The position numbers and the translations under genes are program-made. The notes under the pieces were generated by a model. That model made no database searches and was not told where the DNA came from. It saw only the letters and a program-made list of their open reading frames with translations. Shown piece by piece: positions 661 to 58,791 of a stretch of DNA of 64,000 bases. The stretch spans positions 4,898,001 through 4,962,000 of the forward strand of contig CAKKNE010000005.1 in assembly GCA_918797485.1 (NCBI GenBank), written 5' to 3'. Each line of letters begins with the position of its first letter. Within the stretch, counting starts at the first letter, position 1. This stretch comes from Pelagomonas calceolata (lineage: Eukaryota; Sar; Pelagophyceae; Pelagomonadales; Pelagomonadaceae).

Positions 661-1875
661 ATGCCCGCCGAAGAGGCGGCGACGAGCGACAAAAAGCCGA
701 AGCAGAATGGCTGGCGGGCGCTCCTTCGCGCGCGGCGGCGCCGCGAGAAGCGGGAGAAGCGGCAGGAGATGATGATCAACCACAAGCCGAGCCTCTTCCG
801 CTGGCCCACGCGGGCTCTTCCAGCGGTGGCCGGCTGCCGCACGGAGCCCCACAAGCCGTGTTGCGTCAGCTGCGACCAGAACGTCGGCTCGCATTTGGTC
901 CTCGACCTTGGTGCTCGGCTGCTGGCGACGAGATCCGCATTCCAAGCGATCGAGGTCTTCGACACGGAGGCTTTCGGCCACGTGATGACCATCGACGGCG
1001 ATCTGCAGCTTACGGAGCTCGACGAGTGCCACTACCACGAGATGATGGTCCACGTGCCGCTCGCCTCGAGAAAACCCGGCGCCGGCGCGCCGCGCGTGTT
1101 GATCATCGGCGGCGGCGACGGCGGCTGCGCGCGCGAGGCGCTGCGCTGGCCCGGCGCGACCGTCACGCTCGTCGACATCGACGCCGCCGTCCTCGACGCC
1201 GCGCGGCGCTTCTTCCCGGCGTGCGCCGCGGGCCTCGACGACCCGCGCACGGAAGTTCACGTTTCAGACGGCGCCGCGTTCGCGGCGGCGGCGGCTGCGC
1301 GCGGCGACACCTACGACCTCGTCATCTGCGACTCGACGGATTGTAGCGCAGCAGAACGAGCGTCCGGGACGCTCTACACGGACGCCTTTTTCGTCTCAGT
1401 CGCGGCGCTCGTAGCGCCGGGCGGCTTCTTCTGTAGAAATTATACAAGTCTGCTCCTGTGCACATGGAAATCAAAATTTCACGGCGCGTTCGCTGAATCG
1501 TCGCGTCGACCTCCACGCCATCGACGCGACGCCTGCTCGACGGCGTGTGCACCCGACGCACTGTTTGATTTCCACACAGGTCTCCTCTGGAATACTGATG
1601 AAGCCGCAGCGACGCTGCCCCGCTACGCCGCGCATTTCGCGCACGCTAGCCCTTTTGTATGGAATCAACCGACATACTCGTCGGGCTCCTACTCGGCCCT
1701 CCTCTGCGGCGCCGCCGCGCCGTGCGCGACGCGTGACCTCGCCGCCATCGCCGCGACCCTCGGCGAGACGGACTACTGGACGCCCGCGGTTCACCGCGCA
1801 GCATTCGCTCTCCCCGCATTCGTGGCGCGCCGCATGAGTCCCTCAGCGCCCCCCGCGCCGCCCAACGAGTCCTAG
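661..1875 (+). CDS. spermidine-synthase-like aminopropyltransferase, one introner intron
   Basis: This is a polyamine aminopropyltransferase, which transfers the aminopropyl group of decarboxylated AdoMet to a diamine or polyamine. The N-terminal beta domain is followed by the AdoMet-site glycine motif GGGDGGCARE at about residue 145 and by the CDST motif at about residue 223, where the catalytic Asp is expected. The open frame extends upstream, but the first in-frame ATG is 661; an ATG pair at 769 is an alternative start. An introner intron (1448-1579, 132 nt) follows the residues FFCRNYT. Removing it joins them to SLLWNTDE and gives about 360 residues. The intron is a multiple of three and stop-free. 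The C-terminal half is weakly conserved, so substrate (spermidine or thermospermine type) is not resolved. It is tail-to-tail with an FAD oxidase gene 25 bp away. Confidence 0.85.
   Translation: MPAEEAATSDKKPKQNGWRALLRARRRREKREKRQEMMINHKPSLFRWPTRALPAVAGCRTEPHKPCCVSCDQNVGSHLVLDLGARLLATRSAFQAIEVFDTEAFGHVMTIDGDLQLTELDECHYHEMMVHVPLASRKPGAGAPRVLIIGGGDGGCAREALRWPGATVTLVDIDAAVLDAARRFFPACAAGLDDPRTEVHVSDGAAFAAAAAARGDTYDLVICDSTDCSAAERASGTLYTDAFFVSVAALVAPGGFFCRNYTSLLLCTWKSKFHGAFAESSRRPPRHRRDACSTACAPDALFDFHTGLLWNTDEAAATLPRYAAHFAHASPFVWNQPTYSSGSYSALLCGAAAPCATRDLAAIAATLGETDYWTPAVHRAAFALPAFVARRMSPSAPPAPPNES
1456..1579 (+). mobile_element. introner element IE1 (family I)
   Basis: The element is 124 bp and runs from CTGTGCACATGGAAATC to GATTTCCACACAG. 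The flanking 8-bp duplication is GTCTGCTC (1448-1455) and GTCTCCTC (1580-1587), 7 of 8 identical. The inferred intron is 1448-1579: GT comes from the upstream duplication copy and AG from the element end. The insertion is phase 1 in the aminopropyltransferase gene. The family I core hairpin is present. Confidence 0.92.
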
Positions 1876-1900
1876 TAGCACTATAACAAAATTAAAAAAC

Positions 1901-3541: not shown

Positions 3542-3666
3542 CTTCGTGACCGCTATTTATCGGCTGCCAGGACAGCACTCAAGCGGATGCAAACGCTCGA
3601 CAATTCATGAGTACCCAGGCAATCCTGCGAAGGCATCTGCGACCTTGTTGGGTTAACTTTTTTGGC

Positions 3667-3687
3667 CTAGCGATGTAAGATACTAGC
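3667..3687 (-). promoter_or_regulatory. dispersed CTAG palindromic element, copy 1
   Basis: CTAGCGATGTAAGATACTAGC, here one base past twenty so written as CTAGCG-ATGTAAGATACTAGC. It is a slightly diverged copy of the intergenic element, lying between the start of the FAD oxidase gene and the end of the Cys-rich membrane protein gene. Confidence 0.6.
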
Positions 3688-3790
3688 AGGGAAGTGCGTT
3701 CGGGTCGACAGCTTGCTAGTATGAAAGACGCGGGCCGCGCCCATCAGTCGTAGTAGAACTCCTTATACAGTAATATACACACCCGGCGCG

Positions 3791-4501
3791 TCAGGGCTTG
3801 CAGTAGCACCAGCCGCTGCCCTCGCCCTCGCATTCTGCGTCGAGGCAGCACCACGGGATCGTCGACGGCTCAGACGCCGTATGGTCGCAGGCATTTCCGG
3901 AAGCGTCCGCCGAGCACGCGTTCTGAGTGGCGGCGCATCCGGGGAAGGTCGCGTCGGTCCACGAGGCCATGCACGTTCGGTCCACGGTGAGGCATTCGCC
4001 GGAGGCGGGCTGCTTCGTCGGAGCGCCCGCGTTGCATCTACACCAACCCTCGTTCTCGCCCTCACAATTGTTCGTGGTGCAGCACCAGTGAAAACTGTCG
4101 TCGCAATTCGTACAGTACTCCTGGTGGCTGCTGCAGCCGTTTATCGTGTTGTCGGTCCACAAGGGCAGGCATTGCGTGGCGCTCGCCGTACAGTAACCGG
4201 GGGCATCGTGGCGGCTCTGGCCGCTGTCGTCGTCGCTTTTGCCGCCGCTCTCCTCGCGGGGGAGGAGTACCGCGAGTAGGACGATGAGGACGATGATGGG
4301 TACCGCAATGCCGAAAGCGATTAGATAGTGTACTTGGCGCAAGCGGCCACTACCGTCCCCCCCGCGCCGGTTCGCCATGTACTGGCGTCTTGCCGCCGCA
4401 TTGCCACGAACCGGCACGGCGACCTGGCCGGGCTGGCCCGGGTAGATCTTTTGCGACTCGACGACCTGGGCCTGCACCACCGGTGGCATCACCTCTGCCA
4501 T
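3791..4501 (-). CDS. Cys-rich single-pass membrane protein, intronless paralogue
   Basis: A 236-residue protein of unknown function. A short Gln/Val-rich N terminus contains QAQVV and GNAAARRQY. A transmembrane segment lies at about residues 57-80 (LIAFGIAVPIIVLIVLLAVLL). Two Cys-rich repeats follow, each with the pattern C..W....GC....C....WCC....C....WC.C. The Cys-rich half is a clear paralogue of the gene at 7442-8891. It has no introns: the sites holding introners IE5 and IE6 in the paralogue are uninterrupted here (4180-4187 and 4088-4095). Likely a membrane-anchored surface protein with disulfide-bonded lumenal or extracellular modules. Confidence 0.8.
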   Translation of the reverse strand: MAEVMPPVVQAQVVESQKIYPGQPGQVAVPVRGNAAARRQYMANRRGGDGSGRLRQVHYLIAFGIAVPIIVLIVLLAVLLPREESGGKSDDDSGQSRHDAPGYCTASATQCLPLWTDNTINGCSSHQEYCTNCDDSFHWCCTTNNCEGENEGWCRCNAGAPTKQPASGECLTVDRTCMASWTDATFPGCAATQNACSADASGNACDHTASEPSTIPWCCLDAECEGEGSGWCYCKP

Positions 4502-4662
4502 TTTATGGGTCTCCAGTAGTAATTTCCCCCCTAGTACGAGGAAGCGATGTGCTTGAGAATCTGGCAGCTACAATGCTTATGCGCATGCAGTCACACAGAA
4601 CTTCACTTGACACGGACACTGGCACTCCAGGGCGCTGGACTGAGGTTGCCGGTTTTGCTGGA

Positions 4663-4686
4663 GCTAGCGGCGTGTAAGGCACTAGC
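4663..4686 (-). promoter_or_regulatory. dispersed CTAG palindromic element, copy 2
   Basis: GCTAGCGGC-GTGTAAGGCACTAGC. It matches the consensus at nearly every position, in the GTAAGACACTAG orientation. It lies about 160 bp upstream of the minus-strand gene that starts at 4501. Confidence 0.7.
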
Positions 4687-4690
4687 AATA

Positions 4691-4721
4691 GCCTTAGCCT
4701 TAGCCTTAGCCTTAGCCTTAG
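4691..4721. repeat. (GCCTTA)5 microsatellite
   Basis: Five perfect tandem copies of the hexamer GCCTTA in noncoding DNA directly after a dispersed CTAG element. It is not the TTTAGGG or TTAGGG telomere unit. Confidence 0.9.
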
Positions 4722-5009
4722 TCTTCCCTGCGACTCAGCCCTTGCGTCCTAGTCCAGCCGGACGGGTGGGCCCGGGGGAGCGGGAGGGGTACGGGGGACC
4801 CTGCGACGTAACTAGCCTGAGCCTGAGCCTTGCACGTTAGGACTGCTAAAGGCGCCGTCGAGCCGCTCCGCACCGCTCCTTAAGCAAAGGCAGCGCCAAA
4901 ATCCAATTCTTGCGAGGCATAAGCACCGCACGCGGGCGCAAGTGCTGGCACAAACGGAATGTCAAATGCACCGAGAATGACGTTATACGCCATCCACGTC
5001 CCTACACCT

Positions 5010-7051
5010 CTACGCGCCCCAGCCCTGGACGGGCGCGCCGGGGACCGGTGCCGGCTCGCCCACGCCAGCGGCGGTCACGAGGGCGACGGGCGCCTGGTAG
5101 TGCGGCGGTGGCGGATACGCGCCGGGCCGTGGTGATGGCGCCTCGGCCGAGGTGGCGATGGCTCCCCACGCGCCGGGCGCGTGGACGTAGATGTTGTAGC
5201 CTGCGCGAGCGAGCCGTGAGTTTCGCGGCGACGGCGTCTCCCGCCACGCCATCGACGCGTGGAATTTCCGACACAGACGCGATACCGGGCCCGATCCCCG
5301 GCGGGAAGGTCGCCGCTATGAGCGCGCCTGTCGGGGCGCGGACGACGAAGGATGTGCCCGGTAACGCGCCCTGCGGCGCCGTGAATGTGAAGTCCTCTAA
5401 GGCGCGGAGAACGGCGGCGCCGGAGGGGTTCTGGGTCGTGGCGTTGACCTGTAAATCAAATAGTGAGTCGGGTCTGGCACCGCCACGCGATCGAGCAGGC
5501 GTCGCGTCGATGGCGTAGTAGAGGTCGACGCGACGATTCAGCAATGAAAGGTCGGCTTCGATCTTCTCGAGGACCTGCTCGCGCTCGACGGGCGCGACGA
5601 AGGCGCCGCGAAATTTGATTTGTGCACAGTTCACGACGTGCGCCGTCGCCTGCCAGAGCGCCTGGGAGAACTGCGGCACGAACTCGCCGCGGGCGGCGCT
5701 CGCGATCGCGTGGGCCGCGCGCAGCTCCGCCTCGACGAGCGGCGGCGGCGGGCCGGTCCACGACGAGACGGGCCGACAGACGACCGGCGCGGCCTCGACG
5801 GTTACCTGTGTGGAAATCAACCAGTGCGTCGAGTGCATGTGGAGGACGACGCGACGATTCAGCACGAACGCGCCGTGAAATTTTGACCACACAGACGGTC
5901 ACGGTCGGGTACGCGGGCGCGGTCGCGACGTAGTCCGCGGACTCGCCCTCGACGTAGGACGCGCGGCCGCTGTACTTTTGGCGGAGTGCGGCCAAACCAG
6001 AATTGGTGCGGGTGACGTCGTCGTCGTCGTCGTCGGACGATGACGAGGAGGCATTCTCCTCGACGACGCCGTCCATATCCACGGGCCCCACGACCAGCGG
6101 CTTCACCTCGAACGTACGAGGCGCCGCCGCCGCCCCCGTGGGCGGGAACGACGCGACGCCGGCCGGCGCCGGGGGCACGATCTCGAAGACGACGGCCAGC
6201 AGCGCCCCGAGGCGCACGAAGGACACCGTCGCGTCCCGCGGGAGCTGGCCGGCGGCGCCGCGGCCCAGCGCGGCGACGGCCGCGTCCTCGATATCGTCGT
6301 TGCGGTCCTCGACCGCGGCGGCGTCGTCGACCTCGAAGCAACAGCACACCATTTTCGTCGTCTTCCTGCCGTAGAACCCGCGGCACGCCGCCGCGACGTC
6401 GCGGATGAGCTGCCGCGCCGGGGGCCCGAGCTTCTGGCCCAGGCCGCAGTCGTTCAGGGTGTCCGCCGCCGCCTCGGGCTCCTTCGCGATCAGCGCGATG
6501 TCGACGACGGCGAAGTTCGGCCCGTCGGGCGGCAGCTCCGCGCGCCAGGCGTCGTCGTCCGCGGGCTCCGTCGTCGCCGCCGGCGCGTCGTAGAAGTCGG
6601 GCGCCACGTACCGGTGCGCCCGCCGCCACAGATGAAACTGCAGCGCGGTGCCGTTCTGGTCGTCGCCCGAGCAGTCGATGGCCCAGCGACGCTGCTCGGA
6701 GACCTCGTCGACCTCGGTGTGGTCCACAAAGTCTACGAGCCCACGAAAGAGCGCCGCGTAGGCCATCGGGCCCGCCATCAAGGGCCGCTGCGGCACGTAG
6801 CCGACGTGCGTGCGGTGGCGATGAGAGCGCCGGCCCATGAGCCCCACCGTCAGCGTGCCGCCCGCGGCCATGGTCACGGCCGCCCGGACCTGGAAGCGGT
6901 GGTAGGACCGGTGGCCGCGGTACGTAACGTGGGAGTGCGAGGGACCCCGGTGGTGGAAGAAGAAGCCGCCACGGTTGCGGCCTCGAGAGTAGCTGCTCCG
7001 GGACCCCCCAGAGCGGTGATGGTGGTGAGCTCCTTTGCCGCCCTTCCCCAT
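5010..7051 (-). CDS. His/Gly/Arg-rich protein with PAGV-PG-type C terminus, three introns
   Basis: Function not recognised. Exon 1 (7051-5903) starts with a His-, Gly- and Arg-rich segment and has an acidic Ser/Asp linker at about residues 340-352. Intron 5806-5902 (IE3) joins APAYPT to VTVEAAPVV in phase 0. Intron 5449-5637 (IE2, composite) and intron 5201-5285 (decayed) follow. The last splice yields GPGYNIYVHAPG, matching the PAGV-x-PG-x-x-F-x-V motif seen three times in the divergent neighbour at 7442. Total coding length is 557 codons, an exact multiple of three when all three introns are removed. It is divergent from the 7442 gene with about 390 bp between starts. The region between IE3 and IE2 is a helical stretch rich in Ala and Glu. 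Confidence 0.7.
5201..5285 (-). other. intron, probably a decayed introner
   Basis: Reading the minus strand, GTATCGCG precedes CTGTGTCGGAAATTCC, close to the introner left end, followed by a fragment of the family I core (CGTCGATGGCGTGG) and a CGCGCAG acceptor. No matching duplication or right repeat remains. The splice is supported because it joins GPG to YNIYVHAPG across a frame change. Confidence 0.65.
5449..5629 (-). mobile_element. introner element IE2 (family I, composite)
   Basis: A 181-bp element on the minus strand running from CTGTGCACAAATCAAATTT to TTGATTTACAG. Its core matches IE1 except for about 55 extra bases between GGCGCCTTCGT and CTGAATCGTCGCG. Intron 5449-5637 (189 nt) starts with GTCGTGAA. 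The downstream flank GTCAACGC matches only about half of it, so the duplication has diverged or the structure is rearranged. The intron is in frame and stop-free. Confidence 0.72.
5806..5894 (-). mobile_element. introner element IE3 (family I)
   Basis: An 89-bp element on the minus strand. The left end CTGTGTGGTCAAAATTT is followed by the core and ends TTGATTTCCACACAG. Duplications are GTGACCGT (5895-5902) and GTAACCGT (5798-5805), 7 of 8 identical. Intron 5806-5902 is 97 nt, phase 0, and its removal links two reading frames. Confidence 0.93.
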
Positions 7052-7054
7052 TGT

Positions 7055-7184: not shown

Positions 7185-7351
7185 GACCCTCTTCCTGGCA
7201 GCCTCAAATGCCCGTTTTGTGGTTAGCGAGGACGCCCTGCGGTTGCACGTGCACGCGGGCAGCGAAGCAAAGACAGGACTGAAAGTTGGGCAGCTCAAAA
7301 AGTTGATGATTATAGCTGCCCATCTGCTGTCCCGACGGCTGTAAACAGACG

Positions 7352-7428
7352 CGCGACGCTGAACGGCCCCGTATAGCCGCGCACGCTGCACGGCCCCGTA
7401 TCATAGCCGCGCACGGCCCCGTAAGACG
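7352..7428. repeat. short tandem repeats ACGGCCCCGTA
   Basis: Three spaced copies of the 11-mer ACGGCCCCGTA alternate with AGCCGCGCACG immediately upstream of the ATG at 7442. Probably 5' leader or core promoter of that gene. Confidence 0.6.
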
Positions 7429-7441
7429 CACACTCACTACC

Positions 7442-8891
7442 ATGGAAGGCCATTTTGCGGTGCAAGTACCGCCCTCGGCCGGGCCTGGCTCGCAGCTCAA
7501 CGTTCGCGCTCCGACGACGGGCGAGACGTTGACTGTAGTTGTGCCAGCAGGGGTTTACCCTGGTTCTAGCTTCATGGTGCCGCTTCCGCGGCAGCCCCGG
7601 CCCGTTCCCGCAGCGCCCGTTCAGGCTCAGGTGGTCCAGTCGCCGCAGCCGAAGGTTTACCAGGTCAATATTGAGTCGACGCGGCCCGCGCAGCCCGTCT
7701 ATGCCGAGCAAGTCCAGTCGCCGCGCCCCGTGCCTCCGTCGTCGCCCGCGGGCACGTTTCCGGTCATCGTGCCGGCGGGCCACTTCTCCGGCATGCGGCT
7801 CAGCGTGCGCGCCAGTGCATAAATCAATTGTCGCGGCGCGTTCCTCCATGCCCGACGGACGCGAGTCTCAACTACTGGTTGATTTGCGCACAGGTTCGCG
7901 CGCCGAACACCGGCCAGATGATGACGGTGGTCATTCCCGCGGGCGTAGGTCCCGGGGGTCAGTTCGCCGTGCCCCTGCCGATGCCTGTCGCGTCATATGG
8001 AGCTCGGAGCCGCCCCAAAGGGAACGCGGCGGCCCGGCGGCAGTACCAGCAAGCCCGACGCCGGGGCGATGGTCGGTTGCACAAGGTTCACTGGGGTGTC
8101 ATCGCGGGCATCGCAATAGTCATCATCCTCCTCATCCTCTTGCTCTCCCTCGGCGGGGACGGCGGCAACCAGGGCACCCCGGGGTACTGCACGGCGAGCA
8201 CCAGTGCGGAAATCAACCAGTGCGTCAGGCCGGTCTGGAGGTATTATTTACTATTCTGGCCGCCTCGACGTAGCACGAGAGTGCTCGGCGTCCTCGCACG
8301 AGGTGTCTTAGGCTTACTCACCCGAACGTTTGATTTCCGCACAGGAGAGCTCCACGCCCTGCCTCGCGTCCTGGACCGACCCCACAATCAACGGCTGCAG
8401 CACTCCCCAGGAGTACTGCACGAACTGCGACGACAGTTTTTACCTGTGCGGAAATCAAAAGTTCGGGTGAGTAAGCCTAAGCTGCCTCGTGCCAGGACGC
8501 CAAGCACTCTCGCGCTGCGTCGAGGCGGCCAGAATAGTAAATAATACATCCAGGCCGGCCTGACGCACTGGTTGATTTCCGCACAGGTTTTTACTGGTGC
8601 TGCACCACGAACAATTGTGAGGGCGAGGGCCAGGGTTGGTGTAAATGCAACGCGGGCGCTCCGCCGGAGCAGGCCGCCTCCGGCGAATGCCTCTCCGGGG
8701 GCCGAACGTGCATGGCCTCGTGGACCGACGCGACCTTGCCCGGATGCGCCGCCACTCAGAACGCGTGCTCGACGGACGCTTTCGGAAATGCCTGCGACCA
8801 TACGTCGTCATCGCCGTCGACGACGCCGTGGTGCTGCCTCGACGCAGAATGCGAGGTCGAGGGCAGCGGCTGGTGCTACTGCAAGCCATGA
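7442..8891 (+). CDS. PAGV-PG motif and Cys-rich membrane protein, three introner introns
   Basis: A 352-residue protein after removing introns 7805-7893, 8194-8344 and 8436-8586; the spliced length is an exact multiple of three. The N-terminal half has three related motifs (VVVPAGVYPGSSFMVPLP, VIVPAGHFSGMRLSV, VVIPAGVGPGGQFAVPLP). A GNAAARRQYQQARRRGDG basic stretch precedes a transmembrane helix (WGVIAGIAIVIILLILLLSL) and two Cys-rich repeats with WCC and WC.C motifs. The C-terminal half is paralogous to the gene at 3791-4501. Introner removal restores YCTESSTPCLASW and CDDSFYWCC, both matched in the intronless paralogue. Function unknown; probably a surface or secretory-pathway membrane protein. 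Confidence 0.85.
7813..7893 (+). mobile_element. introner element IE4 (family I, short)
   Basis: An 81-bp element with variant ends CAGTGCATAAATCAA and TTGATTTGCGCACAG. Duplications are GTGCGCGC (7805-7812) and GTTCGCGC (7894-7901), 7 of 8. Intron 7805-7893 is phase 0. The splice joins LS to VRAPNTGQ. Most of the family I core is deleted. Confidence 0.9.
8202..8344 (-). mobile_element. introner element IE5 (family II, reverse orientation)
   Basis: A 143-bp element whose reverse complement matches IE6 with 11 differences by hand count (about 92 percent). It therefore works as an intron in the opposite orientation. Duplications are GCGAGCAC (8194-8201) and GAGAGCTC (8345-8352), 6 of 8. Intron 8194-8344 has a GC donor and AG acceptor, phase 0. 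The intronless paralogue has GCGAGCGC at the equivalent site. Confidence 0.88.
8444..8586 (+). mobile_element. introner element IE6 (family II)
   Basis: A 143-bp element from CTGTGCGGAAATCAA to TTGATTTCCGCACAG, flanked by a perfect 8-bp duplication GTTTTTAC (8436-8443 and 8587-8594). Intron 8436-8586 is phase 1. The interior shares no core with family I. The paralogue has GTTTTCAC, uninterrupted, at the same codon position. Confidence 0.95.
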
Positions 8892-12321: not shown

Positions 12322-12361
12322 GTCGGTAAGCACACCGTGTGTCATAAAAGTTATCGCATAG

Positions 12362-14524
12362 TTATGGGGGCAGCAACCCAGCGAGCGCGTCCCGCGCCTC
12401 GGCGGTCCGGGCCCGCGCCACGTCCAAATTCCTCAACACCGCTCGGTGGCGCTGGGCAGCCGTCGATTCGCGCGGCGGTGCGCGGCGGCCGGGGGGCATG
12501 ACCACGGGCGAGGGCGGAGGCCCGAGCAAGGAAGATGACGCGCCCTCCGCCGCCCGCCGCGCCGCGAGGCGCGTCGCGCCCGTCCACCACCCAAAGGCCG
12601 CGCGCACCCCGCGCCACTCCGCGGACCGCGCGCCGGCGACGAGCATGGAAGAGAGGAAATGGGCGCGCGTCGCGTAGTTGCCGCGCCGCCGGAAGGCACG
12701 CAGGCCAAGCTTCAGGGCGCTCCGCCGCGCGACGCGAGCGCCCGATCGCAGCAAGACCAGCGTGAAGCGGTGGTGATGGGCCCGCGCTTGCGCCGCGCGG
12801 TCCGACGCGGTATCGCGCGCGGCCGCCGAGGACAACAAGGCTCCCCGAAAGATTCGGAACATCCCGCGCCGCAGGCGCCGTTCGTACGACCCAGCGCCCG
12901 CGCGGCCGACGGCCCGCGCCAAGTTCTCGAGCACGCCCTGGCGCGCGCGCGCCGCGGCCATCACCGCGAGCGCCCGCCGCTTCCCGTCGGCCCGCCTGTG
13001 TGTACGTCGACCGGTGAGTACGCGTCGATGTCGCTATATACGCGCGGGCCAGCACCGCTCCGCGGTGGCCCGCATGAGCTTCGCCGCGCACAGGCGCACG
13101 GCCCGTCGTCGCCGCACGTTCGCAGCCAGCGCAGTCACGCCCCGCCGAACCCTCGCGTCGGCCGCGCGCCGGGCCGGCCCCTCCGTCGCTCGCAGGAGCG
13201 CCGCCGCCCCGCGGGCTTTGTTCGCGTCGCGCGCGGCTTCCGGCTCCGTCGCCTGGCACGCGGCCTCGGCCGTGTCGCGCCGGGAGCGCCAGTGGTACGG
13301 CGACGAAGCCTCTTGTTGCGTCTTCGACGGCGACTGCGGCGGTGTCTTGAGCGCCGTGACCTCGTGGCCCTTGAGCGGAAGGCCTTTGAGCGCCGCGATC
13401 TCGGCGTTGGCGCGCGCGAGCCGGCCCTTGAGCGCCTTGACCTCCTCCTCGGCCGCGTCGGCGCGCTTCCCCTCGGCGTCGCGCTCGTGCCGGATCAGCT
13501 GGCTCGCCCAGTCCAAGTCGCTCTCCGCGTCGAGCCGCTTCTCGAGCGTCGCGGACCGCGCCTCGGCGCGCCGCAGGCGCTTCTGCGCGAGGTCCATGTC
13601 GTTGCGCGCCGCGGTGGCCACGTCGGCCGCGGCCGAGAGCCGCGCCGTCGTGTCTGCGAGCGCGTCCTCGAGCGCCTGGACGCGGTCCCGCATGAGCGCC
13701 GCCTCCGCGCCGCCGCCGTCGCTCGTGGCGGCGTCGTCGCCGCCGTCGAAGGCGAGCGACCGCGCCGGCGAGGCGGCCTCGCGCGCCCTCGCCAGGTCGG
13801 CGCTGAGCCGCGTGTTTACCGCCAGCAAGGCCCGGACCTGGCGCAGCATGACCTCGCGCTCCACCAGCAGCCGGTCGCGCGCGCGCGGGTCGCCCTTGGC
13901 CGCCCACATCGGCGCCGCGTCGCCGCGCCGCACCCAGTCGTCGACGGCCCCCAGCGCGTCGCAGGCCGCCGCGAGCGCGTCGCTGCTGCCGTCGCCAAAG
14001 TGCTCCAGCGACTCGAGCGACGCGCGCAGGCCGTTGTCGCGCGCGTGGCCGTTGCTCGAGGACTCGGGCCGTTGCTCTTCGACACTACCGGTGATTCGCA
14101 CGGCCGCCACGCCGCCGGACCGCGCCGCGGCGACCTCGCAGCGCGCCGCCGCCGAAAACGCCGCCGACGCCTCGGCGGACGACGCCGCGGCCCCGAGCTC
14201 CGGCGCGGCCCCGAGCTCGCGGCCGAGCAGGCGGCGCACGGGCGTCGCGCTCGCCTCGGGCGGCGCCAGCCGCGCGAGACCTCGGGGCGGCGTCGTCGGC
14301 GAGTAGCTGGCCCAGGTCGGCGGCGTCGGCGGCGGCGCCTCCTTCGCGTATGGCGGCGGCGACGCCGCGGGCGGCAGCATGTTTACGCGCGTACCCACGG
14401 CGGGCGGCAGCGGCGGCGCCGCGGCGGCCACATTTGTTTGGCGGAGCTCGAGCTTTTGGGGCGTGAGGTCGGCAGTGCTCAGCTCGCACTGGCTCTTGGT
14501 GATGGACCTTGGCGGTGTGCTCAT
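12362..14524 (-). CDS. coiled-coil protein with Arg/Ala-rich C-terminal repeats, one intron
   Basis: Function not recognised. Exon 1 (14524-13056) encodes a Pro-rich N terminus (about residues 30-100) and a coiled coil from about residue 210 to 385 with Leu/Ala heptads and many Asp, Glu and Arg. The C-terminal part is Arg/Ala-rich with repeated RA..L.RA patterns reminiscent of IQ-like or basic amphipathic helices. A 60-nt intron (12996-13055) joins LMRATAER to RADGKRRALAVM. The spliced protein is about 700 residues. A roughly 54-bp segment from its 3' end is found inverted upstream of its start. May be a cytoskeletal or centrosomal protein, but this is inference. Confidence 0.6.
12364..12418 (-). 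repeat. inverted duplication, arm 1 (gene 3' end)
   Basis: The last 17 or so codons of the coiled-coil gene (RTAEARDALAGLLPP and stop) are repeated in inverted orientation at 14648-14701 with one small indel. Confidence 0.85.
12996..13055 (-). other. intron, probably a decayed introner
   Basis: A 60-nt GT-AG intron on the minus strand. Its 3' part (CATCGACGCG, then CTCACCGG, then ACACACAG) parallels the 3' part of introner IE8 (CATCGACGCGACG, CTCACCGG, GCACAG). Left repeat and duplication are gone. Removal keeps the frame and joins two Arg-rich helices. Confidence 0.6.
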
Positions 14525-14939
14525 GTCTTTTTGGTGGTGCGCGGTTGTGGTGCTGCCCTTCTACGAGCACTGACTTCAGCGAGCAGCCCTGGTGTGCGCT
14601 TTGGCAGCGCGGCCGCGCCAGTTCCAAGCCTGGCCCCCGCAAGCTGAGCGCGGGCCGGACCGCCGAGGCGCGGGACGCGCTCGCTGGGTTGCTGCCCCCA
14701 TTACTACTAGGAACTTACACATTTTCGGATTCATGCCGTCGGCGCGACGAGCCTGCGGGAGGGACGCGCGGTGACCGTCGCCCGCGGCATCCTAGACGGG
14801 CCACGCAAAAAACGGCAAGAGCCTCGGCTTGGAACGAAGTCGCTCATTCACGGTATTCTCAGTGAACTTTGAAGGCGTTCGGTTGTCTCGTCCTCGACTC
14901 CACTCGACGAAAGAAATGAGGACGCGGCGGCCGCGCGTC
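14525..14939. other. intergenic region holding arm 2 of the inverted duplication
   Basis: Lies upstream of the coiled-coil gene and downstream of the small membrane protein. Nothing coding is supported; the open frame at 14509-14865 only looks coding where it copies the coiled-coil gene's 3' end. Confidence 0.6.
14648..14701 (+). repeat. inverted duplication, arm 2
   Basis: Reverse-orientation copy of 12364-12418. It would encode GRTAEARDALAGLLPP on the plus strand but lacks a gene context. Confidence 0.85.
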
Positions 14940-29748: not shown

Positions 29749-30965
29749 TTACTCAGGTTCTTCGTCATAGATCGCTGGCCGCTGCGCCGGCGGCTCCTGC
29801 TCAGCCTCCACCTTTCTCTTCAGGAAATTCATCGTCGCCTCCTCCTTGTTCGACGTGATCTTGCCGCCGGGGTGGGCGAACGTCCGCTTCGGCGGCGGCG
29901 GTGGCGGCCGCGCCGCGTCGGCGGCGAACCGGCCCGCCCGCTTTGCGCGCCGCGCGAGCTCCTCCTCGGACAGCTCCAGGCCCGCGATGGCGGGGGGTTT
30001 CTCGGCGCGCTCGCGCTTCCGCCGCGCCTTCACGCGCAGCCCGTCGGCCGTCAGGTCCAGCTGGCTTGACTTGCGGACCGCCGCCGCGAGCACGCGCCGG
30101 TCGTCGTCCGCCGTCTTCGCCGCGTCGACCGTCGTCGGGGGCGCGCATATAGAAATAATTTTCGGCGATAACCCGACCGGCATCGGCACGAATACGCCGT
30201 GCAGTTTTGATTTCCACACAGAGCAGCGCCGCGATGCGCGGGAACGTGAAGAAGGCCTCCAGCGCGACCGCGCCGTCCTCGTCCGCCAGGCTCTTGAGAA
30301 ACGCGTCCTGGCCCCAATTCCTCGGCGAGAAGTAGTACTCTGCTGCTGCCGCACGCTGACCCCGCCGTCGGACGGAGGCGGCTTCGTCCGAGTCGGCTCG
30401 TTCTGCGCCGACAGCTTCGCGGCGCAGTCGACGCACGTCGGCCGGGGCTTCTTCCATTGCTTCTCGACGAACATGCTCTGCGACCGTGCCTGGCCGCAGT
30501 GCTTGCACGTCTTCTGCGTCCCTGGCTCATCCGCCGGCGCCGCGGCGGGCGTCGGCGCGGCCGCGGGACCACCCAATGCTGTCGGCAGGCCCATCGCCGC
30601 CATCAGGTCGCGCTCGCTCGGCGCGCCCGCGGCCTCGACTGGCTCGGGCCCGGCCGCGGCGGCCCGCCGGGCGCGAAGGGCCCGTGCGGCTTGGACCTGT
30701 GCAGAAACCGGCGGCGCGGGCTCCTCGTTCGAGGCCGGCTCGGGCGGCGGCGGCGGCGCGGCGGCCGCCGGCTCGGCTGCGGGCTCAGGCGCGGGCGACG
30801 GTGCCCCGAGGCCGAACTCCTCCTCGTCCAGCGCCGCCTGGAGGCGGTCGACGAGCACGGCCTTGAGGCCGTCGCGGCCAGGCCCCGCCTTCTCAGTTCG
30901 GCGCGCAGCTCGACGACCTTCAGTTTCTTTGGCTCCACCATTGCTTGTGTTGGGGCCGCGTCCAT
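29749..30965 (-). CDS. SAP - zinc-ribbon - La-motif (LARP-like) protein, frame interrupted
   Basis: Three modules are visible in order. A SAP helix pair starts at the N terminus (KKLKVVELRAELRRRGL, then DGLKAVLVDRLQAAL). A Cys4 ribbon (CKHCGQARS ... CVDC) lies in mid-protein. A La motif (EYYFSPRNWGQDAFLKSL, then FFTFPRIAALL, then VRKSSQLDLTADGLRV) follows. La motifs bind RNA 3' oligo-U or related ends. The C terminus is Pro-rich and basic. Frame changes occur near 30895 (inside SAP) and 30340 (before the La motif), each consistent with one missing base; another is caused by introner IE7. The total span fits two one-base deletions plus a 115-nt intron exactly. Start is the ATG at 30965, or 30941. 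Function likely RNA or chromatin-associated. Confidence 0.7.
30147..30221 (-). mobile_element. introner element IE7 (family I, degraded right end)
   Basis: On the minus strand it begins CTGTGTGGAAATCAAAAC and contains the ACGGCG core start, but the right end reads TTATTTCTATAT instead of TGATTTCCACACAG. Flanks GCGCTGCT (30222-30229) and GCGCGCCC (30139-30146) match 5 of 8. The acceptor AG is lost. The nearest frame-restoring solution is a GC-AG intron 30115-30229 ending GCGAAG, which gives a La motif of normal spacing. Confidence 0.65.
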
Positions 30966-37792: not shown

Positions 37793-40734
37793 GTGCGGGC
37801 GAGCGGGCTGCCTCGCGCCCTTGCCGCTAGATGTAGGCGGTCCAATTTGCCCCCTGTCGGCCCAGATGACATAGATGAACTCACCTCGCTAAGAGATGAG
37901 TTCAGGAACCTGAACGATGCCTCGGCATTGCCGGAGATGGTGCTGGCGTATGATCTTTTTTTCGGCGACGGGGACATGGCGATTGACAGTGTTATAGCAT
38001 CCGTCGCGATGGTGGCGCTCGTCAACTACGTCCCAAAGGCGCCGACCGACGGCTGTGCGCTAGTCTTGACAACCTCTTGTCCGGAGGCGCAGGATCTGAA
38101 GGATTTAATAAATTCAATGACTGCCAAGTTTCGCTCTCGGCGGTCGACGCGCGATCATGGCGTCGCCGCCGCCAGCGACGCGGACGGCGCCGACGACGAG
38201 GCCTACCACTCGGCGGTCGCTGTGCTCGTCGAACATGTTGTATCCGCTGGCAGCACGTGGGTGGACCTGACGGACCGTGGTACCATTGACGCGCTAGTCG
38301 ATGTGATCGTGCGCGAGAGCACGAGGCCCGCCATGCTTGGTGCGGTTCCGGGAACGTTTTCTCATTTGTTACGCGTGTCGACGGATACCCCGCGCACGGA
38401 CGCGGGGCTTCTGAGGAATCTTATACGTGTGGCCGTTGCCCTCTGCCGGCTCGCCGCCGACAGTGATGAGGCGAGCACAAATCTGATCACCGATTCTCTT
38501 TTGGCGCTTCTGACAGCCGCGCCGCCTTCGCGCGACGTGGTCTACGTCATGGCGCGGGCCCTCGCCCGCGGTGGCGCGTTCTTGAAGGGGGGTACCAGAG
38601 CCGGTGTCCTCGTCGCTTCGCTAATCAAGCACACGACGCACTCTCCACCAGGAAGGCTGGGCCTTGTGCCACTGCTCATTTGCGACGAAACCGTAGAGGT
38701 CCTGTTGCCGCTCTTGAGCTGTGCCGATTGGATCCAAATTCCGACGGACGTTGGTATTTTCGAAGTCTTTACTGCTTACCCGTCCCCCGGCTTCTATGAC
38801 AAACATGACGGCCGCCTGCAGGTGAGGGACGTGGCCGCCCTGCTGCTGTGCGTTAGGTCGCTGCGGTTGCCTGCGACTTTGGCAAAGTTCGCGATGACAA
38901 TTGCTGGGACTTTGGCGCGGGACTCGATAGCGCGGACGGCTACGACTACGATGACCACCGATGGGAACACGTCGGAAAACTCACGCTTGAACACTTTCGG
39001 GCGCTGCTCGACATTGTCAAGGACAGTGCATAAATCTCCGCCACTGCTGAATTATGACATCCACGCCATCGACGCGACGCCAGCTCGACCCGACTCACCG
39101 GTTGATTTATGCACAGGCCAAGGACGCGGGCCGGCCGTCCGCGCGGATCGTCTACGAGTTTCTGCGCTACCTATCGCAATCGATGATGCGAAAGGACTCG
39201 CCCGAATTTAGCAAGGCCTTGTTCGTGCCGGTGGCGATGGCGCTCAAGGAACACGGCCACCTCGCGAAGTGGGGTAAAAGGGCCACAAGACGGCCCGAAG
39301 CTGCTCAAGACGCTCATGAAGCTGGGCGGCGACTGCGTCGTGGTCGCGCTCGACGCCTTCGCGGAGGCGGCGATAGGAGTCCAGAAGCGCATCGCGAAGC
39401 GGCGCGCCGCGCGCGGAGGCGGCACTGGCGGAGGCGGCGCTGGTGATGGTGCGGCTGAGGACACGGCCGCGCGCCAGGCGGCGGCGGACCAGGCGGCGGC
39501 AGATCTCCTCGCGTCGCTTGAGGCCGAGGAGCACAGGCCGGGGACCACGAAGAAGTCCAGAAAAAAAGGCAAGAAAGCGTCGGTGCCCGCGCCCGCGCCC
39601 GCGCCCGCGCCGGCCTCCGCCGCGGAGGTGTCGTCTTCGTCTTCGTCTGAGGACGACGACGACGACGATTTGCTGCTCCTGGCGAAACAACAAGCTTCGC
39701 GGTCGGCGCCGGCGCCGCGCGCCCGCGCCCGAACGAAGGCGCCCCCTGCTGCGGCGCCGCGCGCCCGCGAAGTTAATCCCGCCATGGCCTTCGCGAGCGC
39801 GCTCCGCGGCTGGATCGTTTCCCGGGGCGGCCGCATCGTCGGTACGGATCTCGCGCAGTTCTACAAAAGCCCGGCGGCGCGTGGACTTTCAGTGCCGAAG
39901 GGCGGCGCCCTTAAGCTACTGCGGACGGTGGCCGCTCCTGCCGGCCTGCGTATCTCTCAGGACGGTCCGCGCATTGTTATCTCCAGCGTCGGGGCCGTAG
40001 CGATGCCTCCGCCGCCACCGCCGCAGCCGAAGCCTCCCGCCGCCCCCACCGCCCCCCGCCGGGCCCTTTCTGACCTCGCCGTCGATGATGATGATGAGGA
40101 CGACGCGACGCCGGCGCGGAGGACACGACACGAAAACGCGGATGTCCCGAGGCACGCCGTTGAGGATTTACTGAAGCTGGAATCAAACGCCGGGTCAATA
40201 ACGGAAGAAGCTTTGAGAAAACTGGGCCGCCTCGCCGGACGCACGGCCGGTAGCCGCGCCGTGCCGGCCGACGAGGAGAAGGCGCCCGACGCCGGCCCCG
40301 CGCCGTCGCTCCTGCCGCTACTTACCGCGCCGGCGGCGGACGCCGGCGCGTCGTATGCGCTCGACGCCCCGCTCGCCGCCCTCCTGGCGCGCCTCGACCT
40401 GAATCACATAGCCGGAGCGCTGGCAGCGGAGGAGATTGATATCGAGGCCCTTCCGCTTTTGTCGATCAGTGACCTCGTGGACATTGCGATCAAACCAGAA
40501 GATGCTGAGAAGCTTCTGGTGGCGGCCGTGGCGCCGCCGCCCGCAGCGCCGCCGCCGCCGCCGATCGCGACGCCGTCGACGCAAGAGTGCCCGCTGTGCA
40601 TGGACGGCGACCGCGAGATCGCGCTGGTCCCGTGCGGACACGTCCTCTGCGCCGGGTGCGCGGGCCGGCACGCGACGGAGAGCTGCCCGATGTGCCGGCA
40701 GGATGTGGCGTCGACGATGAGGGTGTATTTCTAA
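37793..40734 (+). CDS. helical-repeat - SAM - RING E3-like protein, introner and frame breaks
   Basis: Open from 37793 without an ATG until 37937, so it probably continues the preceding UBL frame. A helical region (DELTSLRDEF to about 38880) is followed by a frame change somewhere between 38822 and 38950; a GTGAGG to TTAG stretch (38822-38856, 35 nt) would fix it but is very short. Introner intron 39016-39116 joins RALLDI to AKDAGRPSARIVYEF. Another single-base break lies near 39275. After an acidic, Ala/Pro-rich linker come a SAM-like domain (about 40350-40530) and a C3HC4 RING (CPLC, CGHVLCAGC, CPMC; 40590-40710). Likely a ubiquitin or SUMO-linked ligase. Confidence 0.65.
39024..39116 (+). 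mobile_element. introner element IE8 (family I)
   Basis: A 93-bp element with ends CAGTGCATAAATC and TTGATTTATGCACAG. Duplications are GTCAAGGA (39016-39023) and GCCAAGGA (39117-39124), 7 of 8. Intron 39016-39116 is 101 nt, phase 0. The right half of the family I core is kept. Confidence 0.92.
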
Positions 40735-40967: not shown

Positions 40968-42315
40968 ATGCCGCAGCCTCGACGCCATCGATGCGGCACG
41001 CTACTCCTTCTGCTGGCCGGCAGCAGCACAGCTGCAGCATCCGAAACTCTCCGCGGCACGCTGCTCGTAAGCCATCAGGCCTTCGTCGAGCGCCTCTACA
41101 TTTCCAGGAGGTACGAGCGCTGGTTCGGCGGCGTCGCCTACCTCGTGCTGCCGGGCACGGCGGGCCGGCGGCGCTCGCACGAAGCGACGGGCGCGACGGC
41201 GACCGTGCCCTCGCAGGACGCCTGCGACCGGTATGGGGTCGCCTGCTTCTTGGCCCGCCGCGGCGCCGGCCGGGACCCCTACGTCGCGGCCTACGCGCAG
41301 CTCTTCGGGCAGCTCGCGACGTTTTCGAGGCGCGACGAGCCGCCGCCGTGGCTGCGGCCCCACTGGCGCGGGACGGGGGGCGTCACCGGCGCGGTCGCGT
41401 GCGCACCTAGATTTCTGGCTGGACCCGCCGTCGTTCGCGCACCGCGTCGACGCCTGTGTGGAATCAAATTTACGGCGCGTTCGCGGCCACGTCATCGCCG
41501 AGAAACGACTTTGTGAAGTCCACCCGACACACTGGTTGATTTCCACACAGGTCGACGCGGGCGCGTTGGATCTCAAGCGGCCGTGGACGCTCGCGGCGGG
41601 TTTGAATCGCCCGCCCGACGACGCCGTCCGCGAGTTCCGGGTCTTCGGGCGGTACTGCCTGGGCGGCGAGGCGCTCGACGTCGATAGAGAATGGACGTGG
41701 GGCCACGACGCGAAGGACCAGGCGCGCCGCGCGTGGGCCGCGAGCGCGCCGACACGTGCGAAGGAGCCCGAGGCCTGCGCCGCCTGGGCCGACCTCTTCT
41801 ACCTGCCGTCTCCCATCTTCGCGGACTTTGCGCAACTCTGCGGGACGCAGTTTAAATTCCACCACGAGGTGAGCGTGCCGACGGCGCTGCGCTTCCTCGA
41901 AGTGGAAGGCCGGGCGCCCGCGCCGCAGTTCTTGGATTGCTGGGGCTGCTCGCAGGCCTGGGCCAAGGACCCCGCCGTCATCGACCAGCACGCGTGCGGC
42001 CACCGCCTCGACCTCGGCCAGCGCCACGTGCGCGACGCCTTCCGCCACCGGCTCGACCGGCGGCCCTTCGCGCGCGACGCCGTGCTCGAGAGCCAGATTT
42101 ATGAATTGGACGCGGAGCAGGGCGGCGCCTGGGACGGCAAATCGCTATACTGGGAGACGGAGCGCAATCTAGATAGGTGGACGAACGGCTGCTGCCGGCT
42201 GCCCTCCGCGAACCAGACGGCCTGCGGCTGCGTCGGGCGCGACCCGCCGCGGACGGACGCGGCCGCGGCCGTGCCCTGCCACGGGGCCTACGTCCCGTCG
42301 ACGGTCGTCGGGTGA
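40968..42315 (+). CDS. secreted protein of unknown family, one introner and one frame break
   Basis: The ATG at 40968 starts a signal peptide (CGTLLLLLAGSSTAAAS). The mature part has a motif-rich but unrecognised domain: LLVSHQAFVERLYISRRYERWF, LFYLPSPIFADFAQL, ECW-type CWGCSQAW and a Cys-rich C terminus (CCRLPSANQTACGCVG). Acid and Trp content recalls glycosyltransferase-like lumenal proteins, but I cannot assign one. The frame changes near 41410 (GAVACA to LDFWLDPPSF), consistent with one extra base. Introner intron 41446-41550 is a multiple of three and stop-free; without it the junction reads FAHRVDAGALD. After both corrections the length is 414 codons. Confidence 0.6.
41454..41550 (+). 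mobile_element. introner element IE9 (family I)
   Basis: A 97-bp element from CTGTGTGGAATCAAATTTACGG to TTGATTTCCACACAG (left end written to 22 bases would exceed the limit; it starts CTGTGTGGAATCAAATTT). Perfect duplication GTCGACGC at 41446-41453 and 41551-41558. Intron 41446-41550 is 105 nt, phase 0. It looks like IE10 with an internal deletion. Confidence 0.95.
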
Positions 42316-44015: not shown

Positions 44016-44086
44016 TCGACGCGCCGTCGACACGTCGCCGTCGTCGCACAACTTATCGATTAACTAACGCTATTAAACACTTAAGA

Positions 44087-47409: not shown

Positions 47410-47418
47410 CACAACTGT

Positions 47419-49627: not shown

Positions 49628-50056
49628 CTCTGTCGCACTGCTGCGAGTGCTGCTGTTGGCACTGCTGCCTGCAGCGGTCCTTTTGCGTTTGCGCTGCGGT
49701 TTTCGCGGTCACAGGCTCTGATATGTATATCTGCAGTGCAAAGGTCACACGCGGTCCACCTATTATAAGTCACACGCAGTGCTTTTGGCTGCTGTGAGAG
49801 CCGGCATCGCCTGAGCCTCCAGGCCTCTAGGTCGGAGCCTTGGAGCTAAGCTTCGGAAGCCATATCCCAGGCACTCCTCCGTACGGCTCAGCGGACGGAT
49901 GCGCGAAGAAAGACCCGCACGCACGGCTTCGAGTTTTGGAGTTTGGGCAGCCAATTTGTAAAGCTATGCATGGTGCGGGACGCGAATAAATCATACTACA
50001 CGTTCCCAGCGACTAGTTCTTGAACGCTGCGGCCGCAGGAGGCTGCCCGGGCAACG
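49628..50056. other. divergent promoter region
   Basis: Between the starts of the Nop4-like gene (minus) and the RCC1 gene (plus). A GCTG-rich stretch lies near 49640-49680. Otherwise nothing is recognised. Confidence 0.45.
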
Positions 50057-51658
50057 ATGGCCACGCCGCCGAGCCAGGCCAAGACCAAGAGCAGCCAGGC
50101 CAAGACAAAAAAGCGCCGCCCCGCCGCCGACGACCCGCCCACGCCAGGTTCCAATGATCCGCTCCTCGCGGAGCTGCGCGAGACGACGACGCAGCGCCTC
50201 GCCGCCTTGCTCGCGTCCAATACAAACTTGCTGAGCGACCTCGGCCGGCTCAATACGAGTGGAGTGGACACGGGCACGGTCTTTGGCCGGGCGCTGAAGC
50301 GGGCCCGGGGGCTGGAGACGTTGGTGCCGCCGCCGCCGCCGCCGCCGGAGCACCGGCCGCGTCCAGTCAAGTGCGCGGCCTCGCTCCACACGTCCGTCAT
50401 CGTCGACGGCGCGGCCGTCGCCTTTGGGTTTGAGCCCTGCGGCGGCGACTGGCGGAGCCCGGGCCACGTGCCGTCCCAACTGCCCCGGATCGGCACGGCC
50501 CGGGACGTCGCCGTGGCGTGCGGCTGGGGGTTCACGGTCGTCGTCGACGCTTTTGGTGTGGCGCGCGCCGGCGGGCGGCTGCCCGGGTTGGCGCCGGGGT
50601 CTTCATTGAGACCGTTGCTCCCGAAGGTGCGCGTCCTCGCGGTCTCCGCGGGCGCCGCTCACGTCCTATTCTGTGTGGAAATCAAATTTACGGCGCTTTC
50701 GTCTTGAATCGCCGCGTCGACCTCCACGCCATCGACGCGACACCTGCTCGATGGCGTGGCGATGTCGGTACCTCACCGCTCGACGGAGCCAGCGAGCCCA
50801 CGTCATCGCCAAGTGCACCCGACACACTGATTGATTTCCACACAGGTCCTATTGGCGGACGACCAGGGCCGCTGCTGGTCCGGCGGCGACGCGGGGGACG
50901 GGCGGCTCGGCCGGGGCGGGGCGTCTGAGCTGGCTATCGTCGAGGGGGTCGATGACATCAAAGGCGTCGCGGCCGGAGCGTGCCACTCGCTCGCCTTCAC
51001 ATCGAAAGGAACGCTGTACGCCTGGGGCCTCGCGAGCGACGGCCGCCTCGGATTCACGACGGAGGACGCGAGCGCGCCGCCGACGCGCGTCGCCCTCGAG
51101 GGCGTCGTCGACGCGAGCGCGGGCAAGTACCACTCGCTCGTCGTCGCGTCGGAGGGGGTCGTCTTTGCGTTTGGCGACAACAGTTACGGTCAGCTCGGGC
51201 TCGGCCACGCGGACGACGCCTGGGAACCAGCCTGCGTCGCCTTGCCGTCGAGTGCCGTGTGCGTCGCCGCCGGCGCGTCGCACTCTTTGGTCTTGCTCGA
51301 GGATGGCGACGTCGTCGGCTTCGGCTCCGACGCGCAAGGCCAGCTCGGCGGCGCGCGCGTCGATGACGACGAGAGCGACAGCGACTCGTCGGACACGGAC
51401 AGCACGTCGTCGTCCTCGTCCTCGGCGGCGGACGACGAGGTCTGGACGCCCGCGCGCGTACCTGGGCTTTGCGGCAAGGGCGTCGTCGCGGTCGCGGCGG
51501 GCGGCGCCGCGAACAGCGACGCGGGCCACACCGTCGCCGTGACGGCGGCGGGCGCGGTGCTCTGTTTGGGTGCTGGGGGCTTAGGCCAGCTCGGCGCTGG
51601 CGTGGATTCTTCTTCGACTCCTCTGCCGGTGCCCGTGCGGAAGACTGCTTGGAGTTAG
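50057..51658 (+). CDS. RCC1-repeat protein with one introner intron
   Basis: A 472-residue protein after removing intron 50663-50845. The N terminus is basic (AKTKSSQAKTKKRRP). RCC1 beta-propeller repeats follow: GVDDIKGVAAGACHSLAFTSKGTLYAWG, VVDASAGKYHSLVVASEGVVFAFGDNSYGQLG, VCVAAGASHSLVLLEDGDVVGFG and a final AVAAGG ... GHTVAVT. An acidic Ser/Asp loop sits between repeats. RCC1-like propellers can be Ran exchange factors or scaffolds; the Ran-contact residues cannot be judged here. The splice joins SAGAAH to VLLADDQGRCWSGGD inside a propeller blade. Confidence 0.85.
50671..50845 (+). mobile_element. introner element IE10 (family I, longest simple copy)
   Basis: A 175-bp element from CTGTGTGGAAATCAAATTT to TTGATTTCCACACAG with a perfect 8-bp duplication GTCCTATT (50663-50670 and 50846-50853). 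Intron 50663-50845 is 183 nt, phase 0, and contains a stop. The core has the complementary arms CGCGTCGA and TCGACGCG. It may be near full length. Confidence 0.97.
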
Positions 51659-58779: not shown

Positions 58780-58791
58780 TGCGAGTTTTGC

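What the first reader, a model, noticed from the sequence alone, without database searches (positions are those of the whole stretch)
1448..50853. Ten introner elements that create introns through 8-bp target duplications
Direct from sequence: ten insertions share terminal inverted repeats. Eight have flanks 6-8 of 8 identical (GTCTGCTC/GTCTCCTC, GTGACCGT/GTAACCGT, GTGCGCGC/GTTCGCGC, GCGAGCAC/GAGAGCTC, GTTTTTAC perfect, GTCAAGGA/GCCAAGGA, GTCGACGC perfect, GTCCTATT perfect). In every case the intron that restores the protein starts at the first base of the upstream duplication, and in nine it ends at the terminal CAG of the element. Established: introner elements acting as non-autonomous DNA transposons that carry one splice site and borrow the other from the duplication were described by Huff, Zilberman and Roy (2016) in Micromonas and Aureococcus. 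Inference: this is the same or a sister system, still generating introns.
Basis: partly seen in the sequence, partly recalled or inferred. Interest (0 to 1): 0.95.

Follow-up and report, generated by a model that had tools for sequence, protein, structure and literature searches.

The report
Intron-making transposons in an ocean microalga
Short jumping DNA pieces in a tiny marine alga seem to turn into introns where they land, using the copied landing site as the start of the intron and their own end as its finish; this kind of element was known, and its presence in what is very probably this alga had been noted.

Summary
Eight insertions have TIR-like ends (CTGTGTGGAAATCA…TGATTTCCACACAG) and flanks identical at 6-8 of 8 bases (8 or more of 10 by chance about 4e-16). 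What I take to be the other two are degenerate. Two neighbouring copies are absent from an inverted paralogue that keeps one target copy each. A spermidine synthase domain and an RCC1-repeat alignment cross two other junctions. The genome (32,445,274 bp, 8 contigs) fits Pelagomonas calceolata, whose authors noted introner-length introns. Genome-wide there are 1642 exact TIR ends; 681 precede GT, 370 GC. Added here: copies serve as introns in either orientation, since each TIR carries an acceptor unit; TIR base 2 varied only at the end not used as acceptor (11 of 23 against 0 of 23, in copies selected for GT/GC and AG); one copy sits inside a hAT transposase gene. No mobilising transposase was matched: the readable hAT element has other TIRs, and a second hAT-like locus could not be read. 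Best reading: non-autonomous DNA-transposon introners, possibly hAT-type; a known kind with useful detail.

The parts
1448..1579 (+). Introner intron: donor in duplication GTCTGCTC 1448-1455, element 1456-1579, second copy GTCTCCTC 1580-1587; in a spermidine synthase gene
   Evidence: Spermine_synth domain (E 2.3e-36) spans the junction after splicing; alignment to 3bwb crosses it with a one-residue gap nearby
5806..5902 (-). Introner intron: duplication GTGACCGT 5902-5895, element 5894-5806, second copy GTAACCGT 5805-5798
   Evidence: 97 nt, shifts the frame if retained
5449..5637 (-). Degenerate introner copy in the same gene: element 5629-5449, flanks GTCGTGAA/GTCAACGC (3 of 8 by eye), ends TTTACAG
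   Evidence: open in frame if retained, so intron status is not forced
7805..7893 (+). Introner intron: GTGCGCGC 7805-7812, element 7813-7893 (5' end CAGTG), second copy GTTCGCGC 7894-7901
   Evidence: stop 15 nt into the intron in the 394-aa frame
8194..8344 (+). Introner intron (GC-AG): GCGAGCAC 8194-8201, element 8202-8344, second copy GAGAGCTC 8345-8352
   Evidence: empty in the paralogue
8436..8586 (+). Introner intron: GTTTTTAC 8436-8443, element 8444-8586 (inverted copy of the element at 8202-8344), second copy GTTTTTAC 8587-8594
   Evidence: paralogue has a single GTTTTCAC
3790..4500 (-). Inverted paralogous gene without the two introners: natural empty sites at 4095-4088 and about 4186-4179
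30145..30221 (+). Element fragment: intact 3' end TTTTGATTTCCACACAG, flanks 5 of 8, no GT at the expected place
39016..39116 (+). Introner intron: GTCAAGGA 39016-39023, element 39024-39116 (5' CAGTGCATAAAT, 3' ATTTATGCACAG), second copy GCCAAGGA 39117-39124
   Evidence: gene model not resolved
41446..41550 (+). Introner copy: GTCGACGC 41446-41453, element 41454-41550, second copy GTCGACGC 41551-41558
   Evidence: open in frame unspliced, so splicing not forced
50663..50845 (+). Introner intron: GTCCTATT 50663-50670, element 50671-50845, second copy GTCCTATT 50846-50853; in an RCC1-repeat gene
   Evidence: stop inside; spliced product has RCC1 domains and aligns to UVR8 across the junction, with a two-residue gap placed there
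58113..58209 (+). Core-only remnant of the element family (no TIRs seen by eye)
   Evidence: nhmmer E 3e-6, sequence

Best explanation
These are introners: short non-autonomous DNA transposons. A transposase supplied in trans cuts the TIR-ended element and inserts it, often in an exon, making an 8-bp duplication. If the duplication starts with GT (or GC) in the sense direction, that upstream copy serves as the 5' splice site. The downstream TIR brings a ready 3' splice unit, TTGAT (fits a branch-point consensus, recalled) - TTTCC - ACACAG, so the spliceosome removes duplication copy 1 plus the element and leaves copy 2 in the exon, restoring the coding sequence. Because both TIRs carry this unit, the element works in either orientation. 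SHOWN by sequence: TIRs, duplications, two empty sites, protein continuity at four junctions, both orientations, GT/GC bias. INFERRED: splicing itself, the branch point, movement in trans, current activity. The transposase superfamily is open; the 8-bp duplication and the CAGTG ends of a subset point most to hAT.
For: Eight of ten window copies with 6-8 of 8 flank identity; 25 of 30 loci fetched by the 3' motif have at least 6 of 8, 14 of them 8 of 8. Two empty sites in the paralogue. A spermidine synthase domain and an RCC1-repeat alignment cross junctions. Exact TIR ends genome-wide: 1642, reversed-pattern control 0; 681 followed by GT and 370 by GC. Of 22 neighbouring exact TIR pairs in C1:1-1,567,262, 16 have GT at exactly one end and 0 at both; 21 of 22 have GT or GC at one end at least (chance about 29%, P 6e-11). 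Both orientations: of 46 oriented copies 22 have end A at the 3' side, 14 end B, 10 ambiguous; in the window the inverted copies at 8202-8344 and 8444-8586 (arms 92% complementary) are both absent from the paralogue. In 23 copies not anchored on the 3' motif, TIR base 2 differs from T at the 5' end in 11 and at the acceptor end in 0 (P 0.001).
Against: No RNA reads. No autonomous partner identified. Five of 30 motif-fetched loci have only 2-4 of 8 flank identity (L010, L016, L020, L025, L026), and random positions in the same loci sometimes pair with 6 or 7 of 8 (only the top rows of that control were printed). The 46 oriented copies were selected for at least 6 of 8 and for GT/GC plus AG in one orientation: of 57 scan rows 11 without it were dropped, 4 more with 5 of 8 were dropped, and 4 copies were added by hand; the reversed-sequence control gave 15 rows, so the loosest rows include chance. 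The 0-of-23 acceptor-end count shares that selection. Of 7 core-anchored loci, L059 has about 4 of 8 flanks by eye and L054 no TIRs. One of 22 exact pairs has neither GT nor GC at either end. A target preference of the transposase could add to the GT/GC excess.
Confidence: 0.93

Rival explanations
1. RNA-based spread (reverse splicing of introns, as proposed for fungal introners; PMC9860276 section 8) rather than DNA transposition.
For: Copies look like introns in genes; both routes give introns at new places.
Against: Reverse splicing does not predict 8-bp duplications reaching into the intron, terminal inverted repeats, or copies usable in both orientations; the empty sites carry one duplication copy.
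Confidence: 0.02
2. Ordinary MITEs that hit exons and are merely tolerated or leave broken genes, with no splicing role.
For: No RNA evidence here; some copies are degenerate or fragmentary (30145-30221, 58113-58209, L054); two of eight window copies (1448, 41446) are a multiple of three with no stop in the long frame.
Against: 21 of 22 exact pairs have GT/GC at one end or both against about 29% by chance; alignments to conserved proteins fit removal at the predicted bases; the acceptor base is unchanged where it is used, within the selected set; the species' genome paper reports an intron-length peak near 210 bp.
Confidence: 0.04
3. The elements are mobilised by a superfamily other than hAT (P, KDZ, Merlin, Mutator-like or an undescribed one).
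For: The only hAT element readable here has TIR CAGGGCAGCAG, unlike CTGTGTGGAAATC; most of 46 copies start CTG, not the hAT-like CAGTG.
Against: Pfam searches for MULE and Merlin found nothing although control genomes rang; KDZ and P-like RNase H also gave nothing, but no control rang, so these are uninformative. hAT domains were found at two places, one below the family cut-off.
Confidence: 0.4

Closest known systems
Aureococcus anophagefferens introner elements (Huff, Zilberman and Roy 2016; recalled, the paper was not held)
   Same: TIRs, direct repeats of constant length and canonical splice motifs (as restated in PMC7789003, passages seen); a pelagophyte host; ~210-bp intron length (PMC9481584, passages seen)
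   Different: Sequence kinship of the TIRs not testable here; GC donors seem common in this genome; the share in each orientation in Aureococcus is unknown to me
Introns of Pelagomonas calceolata RCC100 noted as introner-like by the genome paper of 2022 (PMC9481584; passages and legends seen, supplement not seen)
   Same: Very probably the same genome: 32.4 Mb, six nuclear contigs plus two organelle contigs, against 32,445,274 bp in 8 contigs
   Different: The passages I read give only the length peak and point to Supplementary Note 3; TIRs, duplications, orientation and empty sites may or may not be in that note
Symbiodinium microadriaticum introners (Gozashti et al. 2022, PMC9860276; abstract, sections 7, 8, 26 and passages seen)
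   Same: TIRs; element carries the 3' splice site; donor taken from the duplication
   Different: 4-bp duplication there, 8-bp here
hAT transposons
   Same: 8-bp duplication; CAGTG 5' ends in 8 of 46 copies; hAT domains present in the genome
   Different: Most of the 46 copies start CTG; the one readable hAT element has other TIRs

Membership tests
DNA-transposon introners | Many near-identical elements at different places | tested here: met
   1642 exact TIR ends (control 0) and 3077 core matches with up to 2 mismatches (control 3)
DNA-transposon introners | Terminal inverted repeats and target site duplications | tested here: met
   25 of 30 motif-fetched loci with at least 6 of 8
DNA-transposon introners | One splice site from the element, the other from the duplication | tested here: met
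   By sequence only: donor in duplication copy 1, CAG at the element end
DNA-transposon introners | Insertion into a formerly unbroken exon | tested here: met
   Two empty sites in an inverted paralogue
DNA-transposon introners | Spliced from RNA | not testable with these tools
   No reads; only protein continuity
DNA-transposon introners | Non-autonomous, moved in trans | tested here: inconclusive
   Rows kept as oriented are 50-216 bp apart from one loose 362-bp row, too short for a transposase; no partner with these TIRs found
Aureococcus introner family by descent | Sequence similarity of TIR and core | not testable with these tools
   No Aureococcus genome held that I could search
hAT superfamily | 8-bp target site duplication | tested here: met
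   also fits P, KDZ and Merlin (superfamily traits recalled)
hAT superfamily | Terminal consensus beginning YARNG (recalled) | tested here: inconclusive
   5' ends: 8 of 46 CAGTG and 1 of 46 TAGTG fit; 33 of 46 start CT
hAT superfamily | hAT transposase gene between the same TIRs | tested here: inconclusive

The most novel reading that the evidence does not exclude
A transposon became an intron-maker by one base. A hAT-like inverted end CAGTG...CACTG carries no AG; changing base 2 gives CACAG, a 3' splice site. Copies changed at one end (CAGTGCATAAAT...ATTTATGCACAG, where the two TIRs can be identical except for that base) are one-way introns, and copies changed at both ends (CTGTG...CACAG) are two-way introns that work in either orientation. 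The transposase tolerates any base there and splicing alone keeps the A at the used end.
Probability: 0.3. Interest if true: 0.65.

Novelty: new member of a known kind. Interest (0 to 1): 0.42.

Why it matters
Introners are a leading candidate source of new introns. This alga offers a compact, chromosome-level genome with many hundreds of copies of one family, many with perfect duplications, natural empty sites in a paralogue, and inserts that appear to work in both orientations. That makes it possible to ask which bases are kept for jumping and which for splicing, and how weak a donor the spliceosome accepts (often little more than GT or GC at the start of the duplication).

Tried and rejected
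Transposase hunt in the whole genome: KDZ PF18758 and P-like RNase H PF21787 gave 0 matches but no control genome rang, so absence is not shown; MULE PF10551 and Merlin PF12762 gave 0 while controls rang; hAT dimer PF05699 gave 1; DUF659 gave 1, below its cut-off. A search of the genome with the hAT protein found only itself. That hAT element was considered as the autonomous partner and rejected on its different TIRs. A 21-base TIR pattern had 0 exact matches in viral contigs, which says nothing about diverged copies.

I first thought the acceptor end might be better preserved overall than the other end; my own arithmetic on the whole-genome counts shows no clear excess, so only the base-2 difference is claimed. 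The palindrome-like make-up of the duplication (purine at position 7 in 35 of 46, P 3e-4; C at 8 and G at 6 in 22 of 46 each, P 0.03 and 0.02) is weak evidence for a target preference, uncorrected for several tests. RNA folding pairs the two TIRs in 4 of the 6 introns given (8436, 41446, 39016, 1448), only in part in 7805, and the 50663 sequence had been cut before its 3' end; z-scores run from -1.3 to -3.5. Inverted repeats do this anyway, so it is not used as support.
Full report
WHERE IT IS. The window lies at C5:4,898,001-4,962,000 of a genome of 32,445,274 bp in 8 contigs. Pelagomonas calceolata RCC100 was published as 32.4 Mb in six nuclear contigs plus a plastid and a mitochondrial contig (PMC9481584; passages seen). 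I take the host to be that species; the name is inferred, not given by a tool. [quoted passage not shown] anophagefferens', with details in a Supplementary Note 3 that I did not see. So introners in this species were noted in print in 2022.

OBSERVATION. The eight listed flank pairs are there. The element boundaries are set by the TIRs, so flank identity is a fair test: P(>=6 of 8) is 0.0073 at local composition, and at least 8 of 10 sites is about 4e-16. The other two copies, which I identify from a profile search, are a degenerate element at 5629-5449 (-) with 3 of 8 flank identity (by eye) and a fragment at 30145-30221 with only the 3' end intact. Of 30 genome loci fetched through the 3' motif, 25 have at least 6 of 8 flank identity, 14 of them 8 of 8; five have 2-4 of 8. 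In 261 kb (window plus 20 fetched regions, two of which were chosen around a hAT gene) a scan for both ends plus duplication found 13 elements, six of them in the window, against 1 in the reversed sequence; that scan missed two of the eight window copies, so it is not complete.

EMPTY SITES. Window 3790-4500 (-) holds an inverted paralogue of the gene at 7316-8888. Aligned with it, the paralogue has GACGACA-GTTTTCAC-TGGTGC where the gene has GTTTTTAC-element-GTTTTTAC, and TACGGCGAGCGCCACG where the gene has GCGAGCAC-element-GAGAGCTC (the second read by eye, as the aligner misplaced that gap). Splicing from the first duplication base to the terminal CAG gives a protein collinear with the paralogue on both sides (by eye). 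This shows insertion with duplication into an unbroken exon, twice, with length restored.

PROTEIN CONTINUITY. Removing 1448-1579 gives a Spermine_synth domain (E 2.3e-36, residues 125-311, the junction at about 265) and an alignment to spermidine synthase 3bwb across the junction with a one-residue gap beside it. Removing 50663-50845 gives a protein with RCC1 domains (the best-scoring stretches printed lie downstream of the junction) whose alignment to UVR8 (4d9s) runs across the junction, with a two-residue gap placed there; by eye the interrupted repeat GAAHVLLADDQGRCWSGG is as long as its neighbour GACHSLAFTSKGTLYAWG. The other four duplication-bearing copies rest on frame arguments or are undecided: 7805-7893 has a stop in the long frame, 5902-5806 would shift the frame, 41446-41550 is open either way, and the gene at 39016-39116 is not resolved.

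GENOME SCALE. Exact TGATTTCCACACAG occurs 1642 times (809 + 833), 0 for the reversed pattern; 681 are followed by GT and 370 by GC. With up to 2 mismatches the GT-ended motif occurs 2653 times against 4 control matches. A 19-base core with up to 2 mismatches occurs 3077 times against 3. In C1:1-1,567,262, where both strands appear to be listed in full, 79 exact ends form 22 close pairs of 60-206 bp: 16 have GT at exactly one end, none at both, and 21 of 22 have GT or GC at one end at least. I read this as splicing deciding which copies persist, with GC donors in common use; a target preference of the transposase may add to it. L007 583-785, L053 and window 8194 are GC examples with duplications.

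HOW IT WORKS. Each TIR read outward is TTGATTTCCACACAG. TTGAT fits a yUnAy branch-point consensus (recalled), followed by TTTCC and CAG. The donor is the first two bases of the duplicated target; the rest of the 5' site is loosely conserved. Because both ends carry the acceptor unit, orientation does not matter: of 46 oriented copies 22 have end A downstream, 14 end B, 10 are ambiguous, and the two window copies that are inverted repeats of each other (arms 92% complementary) are both absent from the paralogue. In 23 copies not anchored on the 3' motif, TIR base 2 (the A of the acceptor AG when read as 3' end) is changed at the 5' end in 11 and at the 3' end in 0. In 3 of the 13 copies with a changed 5' base among all 46, the TIRs are identical over 15 bp except for it. 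Caveats: copies were oriented by having GT/GC plus AG, and 11 of 57 scan rows without this were dropped; by eye none of those rows has two good TIRs. Four rows with 5 of 8 were dropped too, and four copies were added by hand.

WHAT MOVES IT. Not settled. An 8-bp duplication fits hAT, P, KDZ and Merlin (recalled). A hAT element of 3651 bp with perfect TTGCTCGC duplication and TIRs CAGGGCAGCAGAAGGGCAAG lies at C4:4499549-4503199; its TIRs are not those of the introners, so it is not shown to move them. Searches for four other families were negative, two of them without a positive control.

AGAINST KNOWN SYSTEMS. The anatomy equals the DNA-transposon introners described for algae. Gozashti et al. 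2022 (PMC9860276; abstract, sections 7, 8 and 26 and passages seen) describe the same splice-site sharing with a 4-bp duplication in Symbiodinium, and their methods allow for opposite-orientation insertion, so orientation freedom was foreseen. The family is therefore a member of a known kind in a species where it was already suspected. What I did not meet in the passages seen: the two-way acceptor TIRs spelled out, the base-2 asymmetry, these empty sites, and an introner inside a transposase gene. Searches behind this: in an open-licence library that does not hold Huff et al. 2016; I did not see any supplement.

SCORE. Real, well supported, mostly known: interest 0.42.

Noticed in passing
L032 9180-8989, minus strand (C4, inside the hAT element 4499549-4503199): An introner-like insert sits inside the hAT transposase gene; splicing from GCAACCGG to CACAG leaves an open frame of 892 codons. 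One transposon appears to have given another an intron.
   Followed up: partly
L032/L033, C4:4499549-4503199: hAT element with 20-bp TIRs CAGGGCAGCAGAAGGGCAAG and a perfect TTGCTCGC duplication; its protein has no other match in the genome.
   Followed up: partly
C5:1222172-1222657 (-): DUF659 (hAT-like) match in an 832-aa open frame, below the family cut-off; TIRs unknown.
   Followed up: no
window 19466-25510: Large array of direct repeats with a spacing of about 655-663 bp and submotifs about 189 bp apart.
   Followed up: no
window 12359-12413 and 14652-14706; 55305-55401 and 58775-58871: A 55-nt inverted repeat (96%) flanking a 2.2-kb stretch, and a 97-nt direct repeat (92%); no relation to the introners was looked for.
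   Followed up: no
C1:549074 (-) and 552511 (+): Two exact TIR ends 3.4 kb apart, arranged like the two ends of one element; could be two decayed introners or a longer element.
   Followed up: no
C1:6042068-6045522: Cluster of four exact 3' motifs on one strand with three core matches beside them, perhaps a local duplication carrying an introner.
   Followed up: no
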